A stretch of DNA of 33,102 nt. It comes from Actinomycetota bacterium (GTDB lineage: Bacteria; Actinomycetota; Aquicultoria; Aquicultorales; Aquicultoraceae). The stretch spans positions 1 through 33,102 of the forward strand of contig JACUUO010000017.1 of the NCBI GenBank assembly GCA_014859275.1, written 5' to 3'. Below, piece by piece: positions 26,557-33,102 of this stretch. The notes under the pieces are model-generated. The model worked only from the letters and a program-made list of their open reading frames with translations, was not told the DNA's origin and searched no databases. Both the position numbers and the translations under genes were made by a program. Position 1 is the stretch's first letter. Each line of letters opens with the position of its first letter.

Positions 26557-27126
<570 letters not shown>

Positions 27127-27144
27127 TTACTCCCTGCTTAGCGC

Positions 27145-27179
27145 AAAAAAATACCTTCACCGCAGGCTGCATGAAGGTA
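27145..27179 (-). terminator. pyr operon attenuator terminator
   Basis: TACCTTCA and TGAAGGTA form an 8-bp stem with a 12-base loop, followed on the minus strand by seven Ts. It lies between the PyrR-binding motif and the pyrR ribosome binding site. Confidence 0.9.
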
Positions 27180-27224
27180 GGTAAACTCAAGCAAGTTCGC
27201 GCATATTCTATTACCATCCTTACC

Positions 27225-27238
27225 AGCCTCGCAGGACT
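27225..27238 (-). promoter_or_regulatory. PyrR-binding RNA motif
   Basis: The minus-strand sequence AGTCCTGCGAGGCT matches the known PyrR anti-antiterminator consensus ARUCCNGNGAGGYU at every position. It lies about 15 nt after the expected transcription start and about 45 nt before the terminator. Confidence 0.92.
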
Positions 27239-27257
27239 AGACTTAAAGGTCTCACTA

Positions 27258-27286
27258 ATATTATCAGAAACCCGGATATAGTGCAA
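27258..27286 (-). promoter_or_regulatory. promoter of the pyr operon
   Basis: TTGCAC (27281-27286) and TAATAT (27258-27263) are spaced 17 bp apart on the minus strand, just upstream of the PyrR-binding motif. Confidence 0.75.
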
Positions 27287-27356
27287 CCGAAAGTTGGAAA
27301 ATTTGTTTAGTGAAATTATCGAATGAGGGTGAGCAGTACTAATGCGCGAGGGTCGA

Positions 27357-28325
27357 TCATATATGCAAATCTTCGCTCGATTGAGCTTCAGCTGGCTCAC
27401 CCCAATCCTCGTCTTCCATCTCGCGCAGGCGCCTCCGCTTCCTTATTGGGGCGATGATGATGGCCAGGATGATAAGAGCGCCCATCAGGTACCATCCGAT
27501 ATCCCGCAGTTGCATCAACCAGATACTAATAATCTGGCCGCGCGCGTAATCCTTCCACTCGGCGTTTAATTCATCCTGGTTACTGCCGAGGGCTCGTATC
27601 AGTGCACTATCAAAAACCTCCCCAGCCTGAAGCCTCCCGATCACTTCATAGAGCTTGGCCTCACCGAACTTGTCGGTAATAAAGTTAACCATCAGATACC
27701 CTTGAGCATAATCCTGTGGTCTTGCAGGCTCATCCCATGAAGATTTTGCAGGCCCTAAAAAATCATGGATGTCCTTAGCAAGGGCATATTTCTCAAGCCG
27801 AGCGGCCTCAATACCGGGTTGAGATTCATGAATGGCGAGTCCTTCGACAAACCATCGCGGAACGGTGTCTAACCTGGGTACGCTGTTCGTAAAGATGATA
27901 TGATTTATCTCATGGGCTAAAATTACGGTTGAGTTTCCCACTCCCTGGAGGACAGCGATCAGATTACGGCTGGGTTGCGCGTAGCCAGCTGCGTTAGCTG
28001 AAGGGCTCCCTGCCAAAAACGCAGAGCGATCGGTATAGATGTATAGATCAATCTTTTGCGCTTGATTATGGTTGTACCGAGCAGCCATATCAACATAGAC
28101 CGCCTCCGCTACCCGGCCGATATCTTCAATGCTCGCCCTCTTCGACGCATGGATTTTAAAATGCGGGGTTTCCAGAGTAGCCCAGTCGCTCTGAGTTACA
28201 ACGGCAAAGGCACTGGCTGCTTGGATAAGTATCATAACTGTAAGTAACGTTGCTGCTATGATCACCCGATAACCCGGCCACCAGGTAACCCGGTCACCAG
28301 ATAACCTGTGGTCTCTTACCCACAC
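27357..28325 (-). CDS. membrane-anchored HExxH (peptidase MA-like) metallopeptidase
   Basis: The protein has an N-terminal hydrophobic segment (about 21-42; signal peptide or anchor), an extracytoplasmic gluzincin-like domain with HEINH (138-142) and the downstream WFVEGLA segment carrying the likely third zinc ligand Glu161, and a second membrane helix (about 277-293) followed by a basic stop (RKRRR) and an acidic cytoplasmic tail. This is the pattern of peptidase MA family proteins, whose substrates are unknown. The start is uncertain: residues about 7-22 are encoded by six 8-bp repeats (28259-28306), and a GTG at 28265 within the last repeat would give a shorter protein. It lies upstream of the pyr promoter and is probably transcribed separately. 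Confidence 0.85.
   Translation of the reverse strand: MWVRDHRLSGDRVTWWPGYRVIIAATLLTVMILIQAASAFAVVTQSDWATLETPHFKIHASKRASIEDIGRVAEAVYVDMAARYNHNQAQKIDLYIYTDRSAFLAGSPSANAAGYAQPSRNLIAVLQGVGNSTVILAHEINHIIFTNSVPRLDTVPRWFVEGLAIHESQPGIEAARLEKYALAKDIHDFLGPAKSSWDEPARPQDYAQGYLMVNFITDKFGEAKLYEVIGRLQAGEVFDSALIRALGSNQDELNAEWKDYARGQIISIWLMQLRDIGWYLMGALIILAIIIAPIRKRRRLREMEDEDWGEPAEAQSSEDLHI
28259..28306. repeat. octamer array overlapping the peptidase gene start
   Basis: Six exact 8-bp units of NNGNNACC or NNATNACC type (CGGTCACC, AGGTAACC and others on the plus strand) overlap the 5' end of the peptidase reading frame. Confidence 0.7.
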
Positions 28326-28510
28326 TTCCTACCCACACTCCAATTTACTACTCACCTACTCACCGATCTTCTGCGGCACTGGACAACTATCCATTCCTAT
28401 CTTCCACACCACTTCTTCTAGAATCATAAAAGTGCTATTATATATCATCCTGAGCCTAAGCACTAACGCTACCACCTGTCATCCTTAAAGAGCCGTAAGG
28501 CTCCCAACTT

Positions 28511-28550
28511 GTCATCCTGAGCCGTAGCAAAGCGGAGGCGAAGGATCTCA
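28511..28550. repeat. REP-like element, inverted copy
   Basis: It begins GTCATCCTGAGC and ends GCGAAGGATCTCA, the reverse-complement form of the elements at 11970-12006 and 28703-28741. Partial copies occur nearby (around 28443 and 28475). Confidence 0.6.
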
Positions 28551-28702
28551 ATCGTATTTTCTATATTCTTAAGCATTAGAATGCCTCTGTATCAACCAAC
28601 ACCTTATTGGTTATATACTGTCTAGTGGCATAATAATGAGGGTATTATTTAGATTCTTTAAGCCTTAAACCATTGTAAACCCTTAAGAATAGTGAATATA
28701 CT

Positions 28703-28741
28703 TGAGATTCTTCACTCCGCTTACGCTTCGTTCAGAATGAC
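28703..28741. repeat. REP-like element
   Basis: It begins TGAGATTCTTC and ends TTCAGAATGAC with a core rich in CGCTTACGCTTCG, matching the element at 11970-12006. Confidence 0.65.
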
Positions 28742-28835
28742 ATTTTCTTACGCTGTGTTCAGACCTGTCCTGAGTGAAGCCGAAGGGATGACAGGTTCGC
28801 ATAGGTATAGGGTGCTGTAGCACCAGCAGAGATCA

Positions 28836-28856
28836 CCCGATGAATCGGGCAACTAC
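28836..28856. repeat. diverged, inverted copy of the GTAGTTGCCC palindromic element
   Basis: CCCGAT-GA-ATCGGG followed by CAACTAC corresponds to the reverse complement of the elements at 11858 and 11902, with compensating changes that keep the stem. Confidence 0.6.
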
Positions 28857-28959
28857 ATGCTATATGGCACTGGGTAACTATTCCCTCACTTCCTACCCTC
28901 ATCGACATTGGCACTTTGGCACATCCAAGACAGTACCCCACACTCTCGACCCACATTCC

Positions 28960-29015
28960 CAGTTACCTGGTCACCTGGTCACCCGGTAATCCGGTAATCC
29001 ATTCACCGACTCACC
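28960..29015. repeat. seven-unit octamer array
   Basis: Seven exact 8-bp units (CAGTTACC, TGGTCACC twice, CGGTAATC twice, CATTCACC, GACTCACC), mostly of NNNTNACC form. The array ends 7 bp before the -35 box of the nuclease promoter. Confidence 0.75.
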
Positions 29016-29022
29016 AATCTCC

Positions 29023-29051
29023 TTGACCCCGTTCACTCACTTCGGTAAACT
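29023..29051 (+). promoter_or_regulatory. promoter of the nuclease gene
   Basis: TTGACC (29023-29028) and TAAACT (29046-29051) are spaced 17 bp apart, about 47 bp before the start codon. The spacer contains TTCACTCAC, similar to the neighbouring octamers. Confidence 0.55.
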
Positions 29052-29098
29052 AAGTTGGGTATATAGTTAGTGCTCGTCCCTAACCCGCAGGAGCAGAT

Positions 29099-30331
29099 GT
29101 GAGACTCAGCTATTCGGCCATCTCAACATACCAGAAATGTCCCCTCTCCTACAAATTTCTATACGTTGATAAGTTTCCTACTAAGCCATCGCATTATTTG
29201 AGCTTTGGCAGTAGCATTCACTCAGCGCTGGAATTCTTCTATAGCATAGAGCTGCCGGAACCGTGCAGCCTGGAGAGGCTCTTGGAAGAGCTGGACAACG
29301 TCTGGCTGCGTGATGGATATGAGAGCGAAGTCCAGGAGCAAGAGTATAAGGAAAAAGGCCGGGCGATTCTCACCCGATTCTACTGGGAAAATCTACCCTC
29401 GTTTACCATACCAGTCGCCGTTGAGAAGCGATTCTCGCTGGATATAGATGGCATTACCCTCGTTGGTGTAATCGACCGTATTGATCGGCTAGCCAACGGC
29501 GGGCTGGAGATCATCGATTATAAAACGAATGATAAGCTGCCGCCAAAGACCAAGATCAATACCGATCTGCAGCTCCCCATCTATCATATGGCAGCGGAAA
29601 CGATATATGGAATAGCGCCTCAAAAGGTCACCCTATACTTCCTGGTGCCAAACGAGAAGGTCAGTGCTCGAAAGACTAAAACCGATATAAAGAAGGCACA
29701 GAACACTATCCATAAGGTGGCAAGTGGAATCCGTGGAGAAAAATTCGACCCCCTTAAAAATCCCTTATGCCCCTGGTGTGACTTTATTGAGCTCTGCCCA
29801 CTTCACGTAAACGATCCGGTTATCTTGGTAAGGGCAGCGGCCAACGGGAAGATATTAGGGAGCAAGGGCTCAAGGGAGGGCAAACCCGAAGCCGGAATTA
29901 GAGATCTAAAACAAAATGCAACAGAGACCGCGGTTAAGGAGCTGAAACAGAGTGCAATAGAGATAGAAAGAGTGGTCGATGAGTATCTTGAGCTTGTGGA
30001 GCGGATTAGCAGCGCCCGCTTGAGGCTCAATGAACTCCAGAGCATCATCCACAACTACTGCGAAGCAAACGAACTCACATCGATCAGCGGTAAACACGGC
30101 AAATTGGCCCGCCGGGCCCAGAGGGTCACCCATTACAACGTCAATAAGTTGCGTGAGCTGCTTGAGCCCCGCGGTCTCTGGGAGAAGATAATCGATGTTA
30201 ACGGCCAGCTTCTTAAGAAACTTCTCGACGACGAGACCTCCCAGGGTGAGCTGCGCAAGCTCATCGATACCGCCAAAGAAGTCGAAGAAATTAGCTATGC
30301 GCTATATATAAAAGATCGCGGTAACCCTTAA
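29099..30331 (+). CDS. PD-(D/E)XK nuclease family protein, RecB/Cas4-like with Fe-S cysteines
   Basis: The first 240 residues form a RecB-type exonuclease domain: His41 (GSSIHSALEFF), Asp126 (GVIDRID), Asp140-x-Lys142 (IIDYKT) and QLPIY (158-162). Cys14 together with Cys224, Cys227 and Cys233 should bind a [4Fe-4S] cluster, as in Cas4 and AddB. A linker (about 245-266) is encoded partly by 8-bp repeats; a long helical C-terminal part (270-410) follows, including a 12-residue duplication (DLKQ/ELKQ). The start is GTG with AGGAG five bases upstream. No cas or helicase genes are nearby, so it is a free-standing DNA repair-type nuclease; its partner is unknown. It is the only clear plus-strand gene. 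Confidence 0.88.
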   Translation: MRLSYSAISTYQKCPLSYKFLYVDKFPTKPSHYLSFGSSIHSALEFFYSIELPEPCSLERLLEELDNVWLRDGYESEVQEQEYKEKGRAILTRFYWENLPSFTIPVAVEKRFSLDIDGITLVGVIDRIDRLANGGLEIIDYKTNDKLPPKTKINTDLQLPIYHMAAETIYGIAPQKVTLYFLVPNEKVSARKTKTDIKKAQNTIHKVASGIRGEKFDPLKNPLCPWCDFIELCPLHVNDPVILVRAAANGKILGSKGSREGKPEAGIRDLKQNATETAVKELKQSAIEIERVVDEYLELVERISSARLRLNELQSIIHNYCEANELTSISGKHGKLARRAQRVTHYNVNKLRELLEPRGLWEKIIDVNGQLLKKLLDDETSQGELRKLIDTAKEVEEISYALYIKDRGNP

Positions 30332-30349
30332 TCATGGGTGCATGTTCAA

Positions 30350-31228
30350 CTACAGCTCTCCCCTAAAACAATACCCGATAAGCTTATAAATCAACTTTGC
30401 GGCCAAAAAATTGCTGGCTACGTTACCGGGGATTGGAGTGAGTTCAACCACATCGAAACCGATAACCTTCTTATGAAAGGTTACCTCGCGTAAGATATCG
30501 AGAACCTCATACCAGCGTAGGCCACCCGGCTCTGGTGTACCAACCGCCGGCACCTCGGATGGATCAAAGACATCCATATCGATGGTTATATAGGCGGTAT
30601 CGCTTAGCGCATCTACAATATCCTCGAAACCGTAGTAGCCATAGTGATACCGCCTTGCCGTCACCGAAAAAATATCGTTTGCCTTGATAAACTTGGCCTC
30701 TTCTTTGCTGGTACTTCTTATTCCTACCTGGGCAATCTTTACTCCCTCGTCGCAGATGCGCCTCATAACACAGGCATGGCTATATTGCGTACCTTCATAC
30801 TCTTCGCGCAGGTCGGTGTGGGCGTCAAGCTGGAGTACGCTTACATTAGGATAAAAGTCCTTAATTGCCTGGATTGCGCCAAGGGTAAGCGAGTGCTCGC
30901 CGCCAAGCATGACGGGAAATTTGCCTGCCTCGATCACCTCAAGAAAAACGCGCCTTACCATCTCAGCTTGGCGTTTAGGTCCATCCATATTAGGTATTAT
31001 CTCGTTAAACGTATGAATACCGACCTTTTCATAAATCTCGGTCTCCAGTTCCTCATCATAGAGCTCTACCTGGTGGGATGCGTTAATTACGGCAACTGGC
31101 GCTTCACGGGCGCCCGACCTAAAAGAAGTGGTCGAATCATAAGGAAAAGGCAGAATCACAACCTTAGATTCTTCAAAAGAATTGTGCTTATCTATCCCCA
31201 AGAAATTGAAGGGTAGAGATGTATACAT
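30350..31228 (-). CDS. speB: agmatinase-like ureohydrolase
   Basis: It probably hydrolyses agmatine (or N1-aminopropylagmatine) to putrescine (or spermidine) plus urea. The 292-residue protein has the binuclear manganese ligands His112 (GGEHS), Asp135, His137 and Asp139 (DAHTD), Asp217 and Asp219 (TIDMDVFDP), and the VGTPEPGG loop. The start ATG has GGAGG five bases upstream. It has its own promoter and is separated from speD by a terminator. It is convergent with the nuclease gene with 18 bp between them. Agmatine versus aminopropylagmatine as the substrate cannot be decided from sequence. Confidence 0.92.
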   Translation of the reverse strand: MYTSLPFNFLGIDKHNSFEESKVVILPFPYDSTTSFRSGAREAPVAVINASHQVELYDEELETEIYEKVGIHTFNEIIPNMDGPKRQAEMVRRVFLEVIEAGKFPVMLGGEHSLTLGAIQAIKDFYPNVSVLQLDAHTDLREEYEGTQYSHACVMRRICDEGVKIAQVGIRSTSKEEAKFIKANDIFSVTARRYHYGYYGFEDIVDALSDTAYITIDMDVFDPSEVPAVGTPEPGGLRWYEVLDILREVTFHKKVIGFDVVELTPIPGNVASNFLAAKLIYKLIGYCFRGEL

Positions 31229-31280
31229 CCGGGCCTCCGCGTTAAAGAATTAGCTCGCCTGATAACGGAGCACTAAACAT

Positions 31281-31311
31281 ATTATACCGCCACACACAAG
31301 ATTGGTGTCCA
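31281..31311 (-). promoter_or_regulatory. promoter of speB
   Basis: TGGACA (31306-31311) and a perfect TATAAT (31281-31286) on the minus strand, spaced 19 bp apart, lie about 53 bp before the speB ATG. Confidence 0.55.
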
Positions 31312-31336
31312 CTGTAAATATTCTCCAAAAACCAAT

Positions 31337-31372
31337 AAAAAGAATCCTCCCCGCCTTTTGAGGGCGAGGAGG
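31337..31372 (-). terminator. intrinsic terminator after speD
   Basis: CCTCCTCGCC and GGCGGGGAGG (one G-U pair) form a 10-bp stem with a seven-base loop, followed on the minus strand by ATTCTTTTTATT. It ends the DHS-like/speD transcript. Confidence 0.88.
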
Positions 31373-31418
31373 TTAGTTGAATAGCATACAGCCCACCTTG
31401 TCTTGGCCTACATTATCT

Positions 31419-31769
31419 TTAAAATCTCGGAACTCTGTTGATGATTATATCTCTTTCCCCGATGTCGAGCTGCCGACAGATCGACTCAAGAATCTTTTCG
31501 CAGCTGGTAGGACCGCAGGTAAAAACATCGAGCGCCATCTTGCCATCATCAGCATAGGTATGAATAGAGACATGGCTCTCATCAAGCATGATAAAGGCGG
31601 TGCAGCCAGGCGATGAATTATGACCAAATCTGTATCTCGACTGGTTGATAATATTGGCACCGGCCTCATTCGCTGCATTAACGATCGTTTGGAGCAGCAA
31701 CCTATCATCGATAAGTACATCTGATGACATGTTATGGATGTCGGCGATTAAATGATTACCCTTGTTCAT
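31419..31769 (-). CDS. speD: S-adenosylmethionine decarboxylase proenzyme (class 1B)
   Basis: It makes decarboxylated SAM, the aminopropyl donor for spermidine. The 116-residue proenzyme should cleave itself between Glu64 and Ser65 (LDESHVSIHTY), turning Ser65 into the pyruvoyl cofactor; His70 and Cys85 (DVFTCG) are the expected processing and catalytic residues. This short form is typical of archaea and many Gram-positives, unlike the long E. coli enzyme. Its ATG overlaps the stop codon of the DHS-like gene (ATGA), so the two are translationally coupled. No aminopropyltransferase gene (speE) is in the window. Confidence 0.96.
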   Translation of the reverse strand: MNKGNHLIADIHNMSSDVLIDDRLLLQTIVNAANEAGANIINQSRYRFGHNSSPGCTAFIMLDESHVSIHTYADDGKMALDVFTCGPTSCEKILESICRQLDIGERDIIINRVPRF

Positions 31770-32806
31770 CTCTCAATCCTTTCTAGTTGATCTTCAACCC
31801 AACTAAAATTTCTTTCTCTATAGAAATCCTTATTGGATTGTATAAACGCACCCACAACGAGCGGCAATCCGATGGTCGAGTCTATATATACGGTTGCCAT
31901 CTGCGCATCTTTGGTTATTTTTCCCCAAGATTGCGCTTCTTCGAATGTACAACCGCTTAGACCACCCCATTTCGGATCATCAGTAGTAATCTGGACGGCA
32001 TATTTGTGACCATCGATTCCCCTGTAGCCCATTGTATCCAGTAGCGGCTCCAGCTGCTGGATATAATTTTTCGGCACGCCACCGCCAACATAGATTGCGC
32101 CAGTCGTCTCCGATTTGAGTTTTATCTGGGCAATCTCATAATTATCTCTAATTTGATCTATACAAAACCTTTGGCCTTGACTATTTGAACCCTTTTGAGC
32201 GTAAAGGTGAGTCAGACTTATACCAATAGCGCTATCGCAAAGCGCGGGGCAGAATACCGGAACGCCCTCTTCGTAAGCAGCGCGAAGTATTGAGTTAGGG
32301 TCCTGGATTTTAGAGCCTAAGTAGGCTAAAAACTCACGCGAAGAATGAGCGCGAGGTTCAAGTTCGGAGGCTAGCTTTGAAATGAAAAGCTCAACGGTCC
32401 CGAATTCCTGGTTATCGACATAGGTATCGTAGATGCGATCGACCTTAAGATCTTCAAGAGTGGCATCATCAATATGCGCTGACCCAATGTAGTGATGGAA
32501 CCCCATACTCTCGATAAAATCATGGGTCAAATTGGCACCAGTTGAAACCAGCACATCTACAAGATGGTTCTTAACCATGTCCCGAATTACCCTACGCAGC
32601 CCCCCCGGAACAATAGCACCAGCTATACCGAGGAAAATCGTCGCTGTTTCGTCCTTTTGCATATTTTCAAGAACAATTCTTGATTTGGCGAGATTGCGGC
32701 TCTGAAAGGATGTTGCCTCAAATCCTCGTAATAGCTGGTCCAATCCATCAATGCTATACAGATCCAGATGCTGAATCGGGTGTTTTAGTAAATCCTTTTT
32801 TTCCAA
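31766..32806 (-). CDS. deoxyhypusine synthase-like protein (possible homospermidine synthase)
   Basis: This 346-residue protein is a clear deoxyhypusine synthase homologue: FLGIAGAIVPGGLR (58-71) and VSTGANLTHD (87-96) for NAD binding, VPVFCPALCDSAIG, and the C-terminal WGGLSGCTFEEAQSWGKI with Lys296 at the position of the eukaryotic catalytic lysine. Bacteria lack eIF5A, so the protein substrate is missing; the likely role is aminobutyl transfer from spermidine to a small amine such as putrescine, giving homospermidine. Overlap with speD supports a polyamine role. The start is TTG with AGGAGG five or six bases upstream. Confidence 0.9.
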   Translation of the reverse strand: MEKKDLLKHPIQHLDLYSIDGLDQLLRGFEATSFQSRNLAKSRIVLENMQKDETATIFLGIAGAIVPGGLRRVIRDMVKNHLVDVLVSTGANLTHDFIESMGFHHYIGSAHIDDATLEDLKVDRIYDTYVDNQEFGTVELFISKLASELEPRAHSSREFLAYLGSKIQDPNSILRAAYEEGVPVFCPALCDSAIGISLTHLYAQKGSNSQGQRFCIDQIRDNYEIAQIKLKSETTGAIYVGGGVPKNYIQQLEPLLDTMGYRGIDGHKYAVQITTDDPKWGGLSGCTFEEAQSWGKITKDAQMATVYIDSTIGLPLVVGAFIQSNKDFYRERNFSWVEDQLERIER

Positions 32807-33044
32807 CTGACCTCCTAGAAAACTAAATATTTATGTAAATATCCGATCATACTCAACCAGCTTATAATAACGCTAAAACATTCAATACTCAATATTTTTA
32901 TTGCCATGCAAAAGGTTGCATAACAAAAGCCTGCACTAATTTTCGAAAAAATATATCATCAGTTGCTCGAATAATTAGCACAAGCTTATTAAGTAAACAA
33001 TATATAGAATAATGATTTAATGCGCTGCAGTCAACAAATTATTC
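32807..33044. other. AT-rich upstream region of the DHS-like gene
   Basis: No gene is seen. It holds the DHS-like promoter and, further upstream, an ATGCAA-N4-TTGCAT dyad (around 32906-32921) without a T-run. Confidence 0.5.
32864..32892 (-). promoter_or_regulatory. promoter of the DHS-like/speD operon
   Basis: TTGAGT (32887-32892) and TATTAT (32864-32869) on the minus strand are spaced 17 bp apart, about 58 bp before the TTG start. Confidence 0.55.
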
Positions 33045-33102
33045 CTAATTCTCCTTAAGATACATTCTCTCCAGGCTATCTAGAACTTCCCGTAAATCCT
33101 GC
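33045..33102 (-). CDS. 3' end of an unidentified gene, cut by the window edge
   Basis: An open minus-strand frame enters from the right edge and ends at TAG 33045-33047. The visible C-terminus, QDLREVLDSLERMYLKEN, is charged and looks like an amphipathic helix. Too little remains to name it; it would lie upstream of the DHS-like gene in the same direction. Confidence 0.5.
   Translation of the reverse strand, partial: QDLREVLDSLERMYLKEN

What the first reader, a model, noticed from the sequence alone, without database searches (positions are those of the whole stretch)
31419..32806. Deoxyhypusine-synthase homologue translationally coupled to SpeD in a bacterium
The DHS-like gene and speD overlap by ATGA and share one promoter and one terminator. 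DHS chemistry normally needs the eIF5A protein, which bacteria lack, yet the catalytic lysine (Lys296) and NAD-binding motifs are intact. The pairing suggests a route in which SpeD-derived spermidine becomes the aminobutyl donor for homospermidine or another polyamine. No speE is in the window, so either it lies elsewhere or the DHS-like enzyme has a different amine pathway. That the enzyme makes homospermidine is inference.
Basis: partly seen in the sequence, partly recalled or inferred. Interest (0 to 1): 0.6.

Follow-up and report, generated by a model that had tools for sequence, protein, structure and literature searches.

The report
Arginine-to-homospermidine gene cluster in Aquicultoraceae
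Three neighbouring bacterial genes very probably turn arginine into the polyamine homospermidine, using a SpeD relative repurposed as an arginine decarboxylase and a hypusine-enzyme relative that joins small amines; the same kind of cluster has already been described in other bacteria and archaea.

Summary
The two genes are real and placed as described: a deoxyhypusine-synthase (DHS) homologue (32806-31766, minus strand, TTG start) whose stop overlaps the start of a SpeD homologue (31769-31419) as ATGA. Catalytic Lys296 is intact. The overlap, a promoter and a terminator hairpin are conserved in relatives (Aquicultoraceae, Actinomycetota). The genome has no SpeE, no speA/speC-type decarboxylase, no archaeal PvlArgDC and no eIF5A domain. 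This SpeD lacks the proline that marks true AdoMet decarboxylases (HTYAD instead of HTWPE) in 10 of 10 Aquicultoraceae; 6 of 6 SpeDs from other families of the class keep it, and 5 of those 6 genomes carry SpeE. Best reading: arginine -> agmatine (SpeD acting as arginine decarboxylase, SpeDA) -> putrescine (SpeB) -> homospermidine (DHS homologue, SpeY type). This gene set was described by Li et al. 2023 (PMC10407285). Open: whether the DHS homologue joins two putrescines or two agmatines (caldomycin route, PMC10981699). Extra: in a sister genus the DHS gene is a decayed remnant while speD-speB stay intact. A new member of a known kind.

The parts
31766..32806 (-). DHS homologue (SpeY-like), 346 aa, TTG start; likely NAD-dependent homospermidine-forming enzyme
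   Evidence: PF01916 337 bits; Lys296, Glu290, Trp294, Asp191, Ser284 conserved; human DHS D243/D313/D316/H288 replaced by I196/W280/L283/N247; purifying selection
31419..31769 (-). SpeD homologue, 116 aa, likely pyruvoyl-dependent arginine decarboxylase (SpeDA)
   Evidence: PF02675 79 bits; equivalents of T. maritima Ser63, His68 and Cys83 kept (Ser65, His70, Cys85), Pro71 replaced by Ala73
31766..31769 (-). ATGA stop/start overlap between the DHS homologue and SpeD
   Evidence: conserved in relatives with an intact DHS gene
30350..31228 (-). SpeB, agmatinase (agmatine ureohydrolase), 292 aa
   Evidence: TIGR01230 253 bits against cut-off 174; metal motifs GGEHS, DAHTD, TIDMDVFDP in the sequence; conserved downstream of speD
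32864..32892 (-). sigma-A type promoter TTGAGT-17-TATTAT
   Evidence: conserved in Aquicultoraceae loci, even in the genus that lost the DHS gene
32916..32934 (-). conserved block GCAGGCTTTTGTTATGCAA upstream of the promoter, possible regulator site
   Evidence: present in the loci with an intact DHS gene, degraded in the genus with the DHS remnant; function not tested
31346..31372 (-). intrinsic terminator-like hairpin between speD and speB
   Evidence: hairpin conserved in five aligned loci with a G-C to A-T pair change in L006, T-run weak in L004

Best explanation
The cluster is a self-contained homospermidine pathway starting from arginine. The SpeD homologue cleaves itself to make a pyruvoyl group and decarboxylates L-arginine to agmatine (SpeDA, not AdoMet decarboxylase). 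SpeB hydrolyses agmatine to putrescine and urea. The DHS homologue (SpeY type) uses NAD and Lys296 to carry an aminobutyl group as an enzyme-imine and transfers it to a second putrescine, giving homospermidine. No AdoMet, spermidine synthase or PLP decarboxylase is needed. Shown here: gene content, linkage and its conservation, catalytic residues, and absence of the recognised alternative enzymes from the genome. Inferred: all three substrate specificities.
For: Single SpeD in the genome with no SpeE. The only PF02784 protein is LysA (477 bits), beside hom and argS. No OKR-type decarboxylase, PvlArgDC or eIF5A. Agmatinase over its curated cut-off is the next gene. The proline diagnostic of AdoMetDC (PMC10407285) is Ala here. 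Control inside the class: 10/10 Aquicultoraceae SpeDs lack it; 6/6 SpeDs from other families have it, and 5 of those 6 genomes have canonical SpeE. S-PM2 phage SpeD, shown to be AdoMetDC (PMC9992855), also has it. The three-gene cluster is conserved in all family genomes with this DHS type. Acidic residues of human DHS are absent. In genus g2 the DHS gene is a remnant but promoter, speD and speB remain, as expected if SpeD and SpeB form a working arginine-to-putrescine unit. Published precedent: Marinimicrobia speD-speB-speY cluster with proven arginine decarboxylase, and SpeDAs in speY/speB clusters from several phyla.
Against: No enzyme of this family from Aquicultoraceae has been assayed. 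The DHS homologue passes no curated equivalog cut-off (best NF002006 at 374 of 434 bits; SpeY model NF001980 only 211 of 450), so its substrate is not assigned by homology. SpeD passes the AdoMetDC model TIGR03330 narrowly (80.5 against 75.65). The proline rule comes from one paper. The assembly is 98.2% complete, so a missed SpeE is possible though unlikely given the parallel absence in G006 and G010; several other relatives carry 500-620 aa membrane-fused PF01564 proteins of unknown role.
Confidence: 0.65

Rival explanations
1. [quoted passage not shown]
For: CdmS also replaces human Asp243/Asp316 by hydrophobic residues (Phe204/Leu286); here they are Ile196/Leu283 (PMC10981699). The model named for this activity (NF002699, 309 bits) scores above the SpeY model NF001980 (211 bits). 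Agmatine maker and ureohydrolase are both in the cluster.
Against: The NF002699 cut-off (500) is not met. The same model covers a Sphingomonas protein next to a PLP decarboxylase gene, so it does not prove agmatine use. In genus g2 speB is kept after loss of the coupling enzyme, which suggests direct agmatinase activity.
Confidence: 0.22
2. SpeD is a true AdoMet decarboxylase and spermidine is made with an unrecognised aminopropyltransferase; the DHS homologue then uses spermidine as donor.
For: SpeD passes TIGR03330; some relatives have distant membrane-fused PF01564 proteins.
Against: No PF01564 match at all in this genome, G006 or G010; proline missing; no recognised source of putrescine or agmatine would exist in the genome.
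Confidence: 0.05
3. The SpeD homologue is an ornithine decarboxylase (SpeDC), giving putrescine directly, and SpeB has another substrate.
For: SpeDC enzymes also lack AdoMetDC activity and occur in SpeE-less genomes; a second, arginase-like PF00491 protein is present.
Against: The paper associates SpeDC with genomes lacking a route from agmatine to putrescine and gives a Gln/Thr/Phe/Tyr signature; there is no Gln between the pyruvoyl Ser65 and Cys85 here. Exact logo positions could not be read, so this is not a full test. SpeB passes the agmatinase cut-off.
Confidence: 0.06
4. The DHS homologue modifies a protein (eIF5A-like or EF-P).
For: Catalytic Lys and fold family shared with DHS.
Against: No eIF-5a domain found (the model also missed Haloferax, so sensitivity is limited); polyamine gene linkage; substrate-site acidic residues lost.
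Confidence: 0.02

Closest known systems
speDA-speB-speY homospermidine clusters (Ca. Marinimicrobia, Capsulimonas corticalis, Solirubrobacter sp., Ca. Woesearchaeota; Li et al. 2023, PMC10407285)
   Same: Same three genes, no SpeE, SpeD lacking the AdoMetDC proline, agmatinase present
   Different: Aquicultoraceae lineage; order DHS-SpeD-SpeB with ATGA coupling and a terminator hairpin before speB; activity not assayed
SpeY, DHS-like homospermidine synthase (Anabaena; Burnat et al. 2018, cited in PMC10407285)
   Same: DHS homologue with catalytic Lys, in a bacterium without evident eIF5A, polyamine role
   Different: Scores well under the curated SpeY-type model NF001980 (211 of 450 bits); forms a separate clade with Nitrospirota homologues (52-54% identity)
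Caldomycin synthase CdmS of Thermus thermophilus (PMC10981699)
   Same: Two Asp residues of human DHS replaced by hydrophobic residues; agmatine maker and ureohydrolase at hand
   Different: Under the model cut-off (309 of 500 bits); Ile in place of Phe204; Thermus also has SpeE and a true SpeD
Human and archaeal deoxyhypusine synthase
   Same: Sequence family, equivalents of Lys329, Glu323, Trp327, Asp238 kept
   Different: D243, D313, D316, H288 not kept; no eIF5A substrate found

Membership tests
speDA-speB-speY homospermidine cluster | SpeD homologue, agmatinase and DHS homologue clustered | tested here: met
speDA-speB-speY homospermidine cluster | No SpeE and no canonical SpeA/SpeC in the genome | tested here: met
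SpeDA arginine decarboxylase | Self-processing residues Ser63/His68/Cys83 kept, AdoMetDC proline not kept | tested here: met
SpeDA arginine decarboxylase | Decarboxylates arginine, not AdoMet or ornithine | not testable with these tools
   needs an enzyme assay
SpeDC ornithine decarboxylase | Gln/Thr/Phe/Tyr signature in the central region | tested here: inconclusive
   Positions are only in a figure that is not held; no Gln between Ser65 and Cys85 of the window SpeD
AdoMet decarboxylase class 1b | Conserved proline after HTW, and a SpeE partner in the genome | tested here: not met
   HTYAD; no SpeE
SpeY / DHS-like homospermidine synthase | Over curated model cut-off NF001980 | tested here: not met
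   210.7 of 450 bits; so 'works like SpeY' is inference from the gene neighbourhood
Caldomycin synthase (NF002699) | Over curated model cut-off | tested here: not met
   308.8 of 500 bits; Trichormus and Sphingomonas homologues pass
Deoxyhypusine synthase superfamily (PF01916) | Domain match over cut-off and catalytic Lys | tested here: met
   337 bits against 27; Lys296
Protein-modifying deoxyhypusine synthase | eIF5A substrate in the genome | tested here: not met
   no PF01287 match
Agmatinase SpeB (TIGR01230) | Over curated cut-off | tested here: met
   253.3 of 174.3 bits

The most novel reading that the evidence does not exclude
The Aquicultoraceae/Nitrospirota DHS clade has its own substrate specificity (agmatine coupling to caldomycin fed by a SpeDA enzyme, or another mixed amine), giving a SpeDA-driven route free of AdoMet and PLP that has not been shown in any organism; its loss in a sister genus leaves a putrescine-only pathway.
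Probability: 0.25. Interest if true: 0.45.

Novelty: new member of a known kind. Interest (0 to 1): 0.25.

Why it matters
It adds a lineage of uncultured subsurface Actinomycetota to those that appear to make homospermidine from arginine without AdoMet or PLP, and shows that the automatic names 'deoxyhypusine synthase' and 'adenosylmethionine decarboxylase' are both misleading here. The sister genus with a decayed DHS gene is a natural deletion that could separate the roles of putrescine and homospermidine.

Tried and rejected
AlphaFold2 on a 7-sequence alignment gave mean pLDDT 56 with the active-site region (235-312) below 50, so no structural claim is based on it and no fold search was run. 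An Rfam scan of 28000-33102 found no riboswitch or other RNA family, so the conserved upstream block is not a catalogued RNA element. The PF02784 hit as a possible arginine or ornithine decarboxylase was rejected: it is LysA. The PF01564 hits in relatives as SpeE were judged unlikely: low scores, 500-620 aa membrane fusions.

Full report
OBSERVATION. The DHS homologue starts at TTG 32806 behind AGGAGGT and ends at 31766; the SpeD homologue runs 31769-31419 and shares ATGA with it. Pfam gives DS 337 bits and AdoMet_dc 79 bits. dN is about 0.03-0.17 between relatives with dS mostly above 1 or saturated, and the ATGA junction is present in every relative with an intact DHS gene that was checked. 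This is a maintained, coupled pair and not a chance arrangement.

The next gene on the same strand, 31228-30350, is agmatinase (TIGR01230, 253 bits over a cut-off of 174). A hairpin with a T-run at 31372-31346 lies between speD and speB; it is conserved in relatives, with a two-sided pair change in L006, so speB is probably read through at a reduced level or has its own start (inference). A sigma-A type promoter at 32892-32864 is conserved in the Aquicultoraceae loci, with a further conserved block (GCAGGCTTTTGTTATGCAA, 32934-32916) upstream of it.

THE ORGANISM. Named relatives at 84-87% DHS identity are Candidatus Aquicultor secundus and other MAGs, mostly labelled Actinomycetota. The genome is 2.83 Mb in 299 contigs, 98.2% complete. 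The named records L004-L007 appear to be the same genomes as G010, G005, G006 and G008, judged by identical match values, so they are not counted twice: seven genomes in the family, the window's own included, carry the intact cluster.

GENOME INVENTORY. One SpeD; no SpeE; no OKR-type decarboxylase; no archaeal pyruvoyl arginine decarboxylase; no eIF5A domain (the model missed Haloferax among the controls, so sensitivity is not perfect). The single PF02784 protein is diaminopimelate decarboxylase LysA (477 bits), next to hom and argS. A second PF00491 protein is arginase-like but below cut-off. So unless SpeD makes agmatine or putrescine, no recognised enzyme in the genome does.

SPED IS PROBABLY AN ARGININE DECARBOXYLASE. 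Li et al. 2023 (PMC10407285) showed that SpeD homologues in genomes lacking SpeE can be arginine (SpeDA) or ornithine (SpeDC) decarboxylases, that most SpeDA genes studied lie in clusters with speY, often with agmatinase, and that a proline fully conserved in true AdoMetDC is not conserved in SpeDA. The window SpeD keeps the residues equivalent to T. maritima Ser63, His68 and Cys83 (Ser65, His70, Cys85), but has HTYAD where T. maritima and Aquifex have HTWPE. The class gives its own control: all ten Aquicultoraceae SpeDs have HTYAD; all six SpeDs of other families in the class have HTWPE, and five of those six genomes also carry a canonical SpeE (180-219 bits), adjacent in three. The sixth (G023, 79% complete) has no SpeE found. 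Synechococcus phage S-PM2 SpeD, a proven AdoMetDC (PMC9992855), also has HTWPE. SpeDC cannot be fully excluded because the signature positions are only in a figure, but the Gln of that signature has no candidate between the pyruvoyl Ser and the Cys here, and agmatinase is the next gene.

DHS HOMOLOGUE. It keeps Lys296, Glu290, Trp294, Asp191 and Ser284, but human D243, D313, D316 and H288 are I196, W280, L283 and N247. It reaches no curated equivalog cut-off: NF002006 374/434, NF002699 (caldomycin synthase) 309/500, NF001980 (homospermidine biosynthesis protein) 211/450. It forms a clade with two Nitrospirota proteins at 52-54% identity, separate from the NF002699 type and from human/haloarchaeal DHS. 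The Nitrospirota copies have no speD or speB match in the DNA held around them. Two chemistries fit: two putrescines to homospermidine (SpeY), or two agmatines to caldomycin followed by SpeB (CdmS; PMC10981699). The CdmS active site also replaces D243 and D316 by hydrophobic residues, which fits, but similar replacements occur in a Sphingomonas protein encoded beside a PLP decarboxylase gene, so they do not separate the two.

A NATURAL DELETION. In genus g2 (G001-G003; L049, L050, L052) the promoter, ribosome site and TTG start are kept, but the DHS gene is reduced to parts of its first and last ~80 codons, with about 560 bp of the middle missing, shifted frames and no SWGK lysine motif; the intact speD ATG follows, then speB (tblastn E 6e-16 for the C-terminal part in L049; part of speB in L049 reads N). 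In G004 no SpeD was found. These genomes carry a second, very divergent DHS-family protein (23-25% identity, catalytic Lys kept), which G009 has in addition to the intact cluster. Retention of speD-speB without the DHS gene suggests that the two make putrescine on their own, which slightly favours the SpeY order; replacement by the divergent paralogue cannot be excluded.

VERDICT. A coupled, conserved polyamine cluster of a published kind (speDA-speB-speY) in a lineage for which I found no polyamine paper in the library searched.

Noticed in passing
L049:1000-1486, L052:1000-1486, and the stretch upstream of speD on the minus strand of L050: Decayed DHS gene between an intact promoter and intact speD-speB in three genomes of a sister genus.
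   Followed up: yes
L016-L019 and L022:1486-2460: Divergent DHS-family protein (about 24% identity, Lys kept, Tyr/Asn/Asp at DHS substrate positions) in genus g2 and G009; in L022 it lies next to a gene resembling a PP2C/SpoIIE-type phosphatase. Function unknown.
   Followed up: partly
window 32916-32934: Block GCAGGCTTTTGTTATGCAA upstream of the promoter, conserved in genomes with an intact DHS gene and degraded where the gene is lost; possible regulator site, no Rfam match.
   Followed up: partly
L060:526-2241: Membrane-fused spermidine-synthase-like protein; proteins of this kind (500-620 aa) occur in several Aquicultoraceae but not in this genome; role unknown.
   Followed up: partly
window 29099-30331: PD-(D/E)XK nuclease (Cas4/AddB-like, with a DUF7376 match) downstream of speB on the opposite strand, also conserved downstream of speB in L006.
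   Followed up: no
window 26572-33102: The cluster sits between the end of an rluD-like gene (contig edge) and a pyrR-like gene, suggesting insertion into an lspA-rluD-pyrR neighbourhood.
   Followed up: no
L035:3536-6038: Trichormus variabilis plasmid A carries a DHS homologue over the caldomycin-synthase model cut-off (592 bits) next to ornithine aminotransferase rocD and feo iron genes.
   Followed up: no
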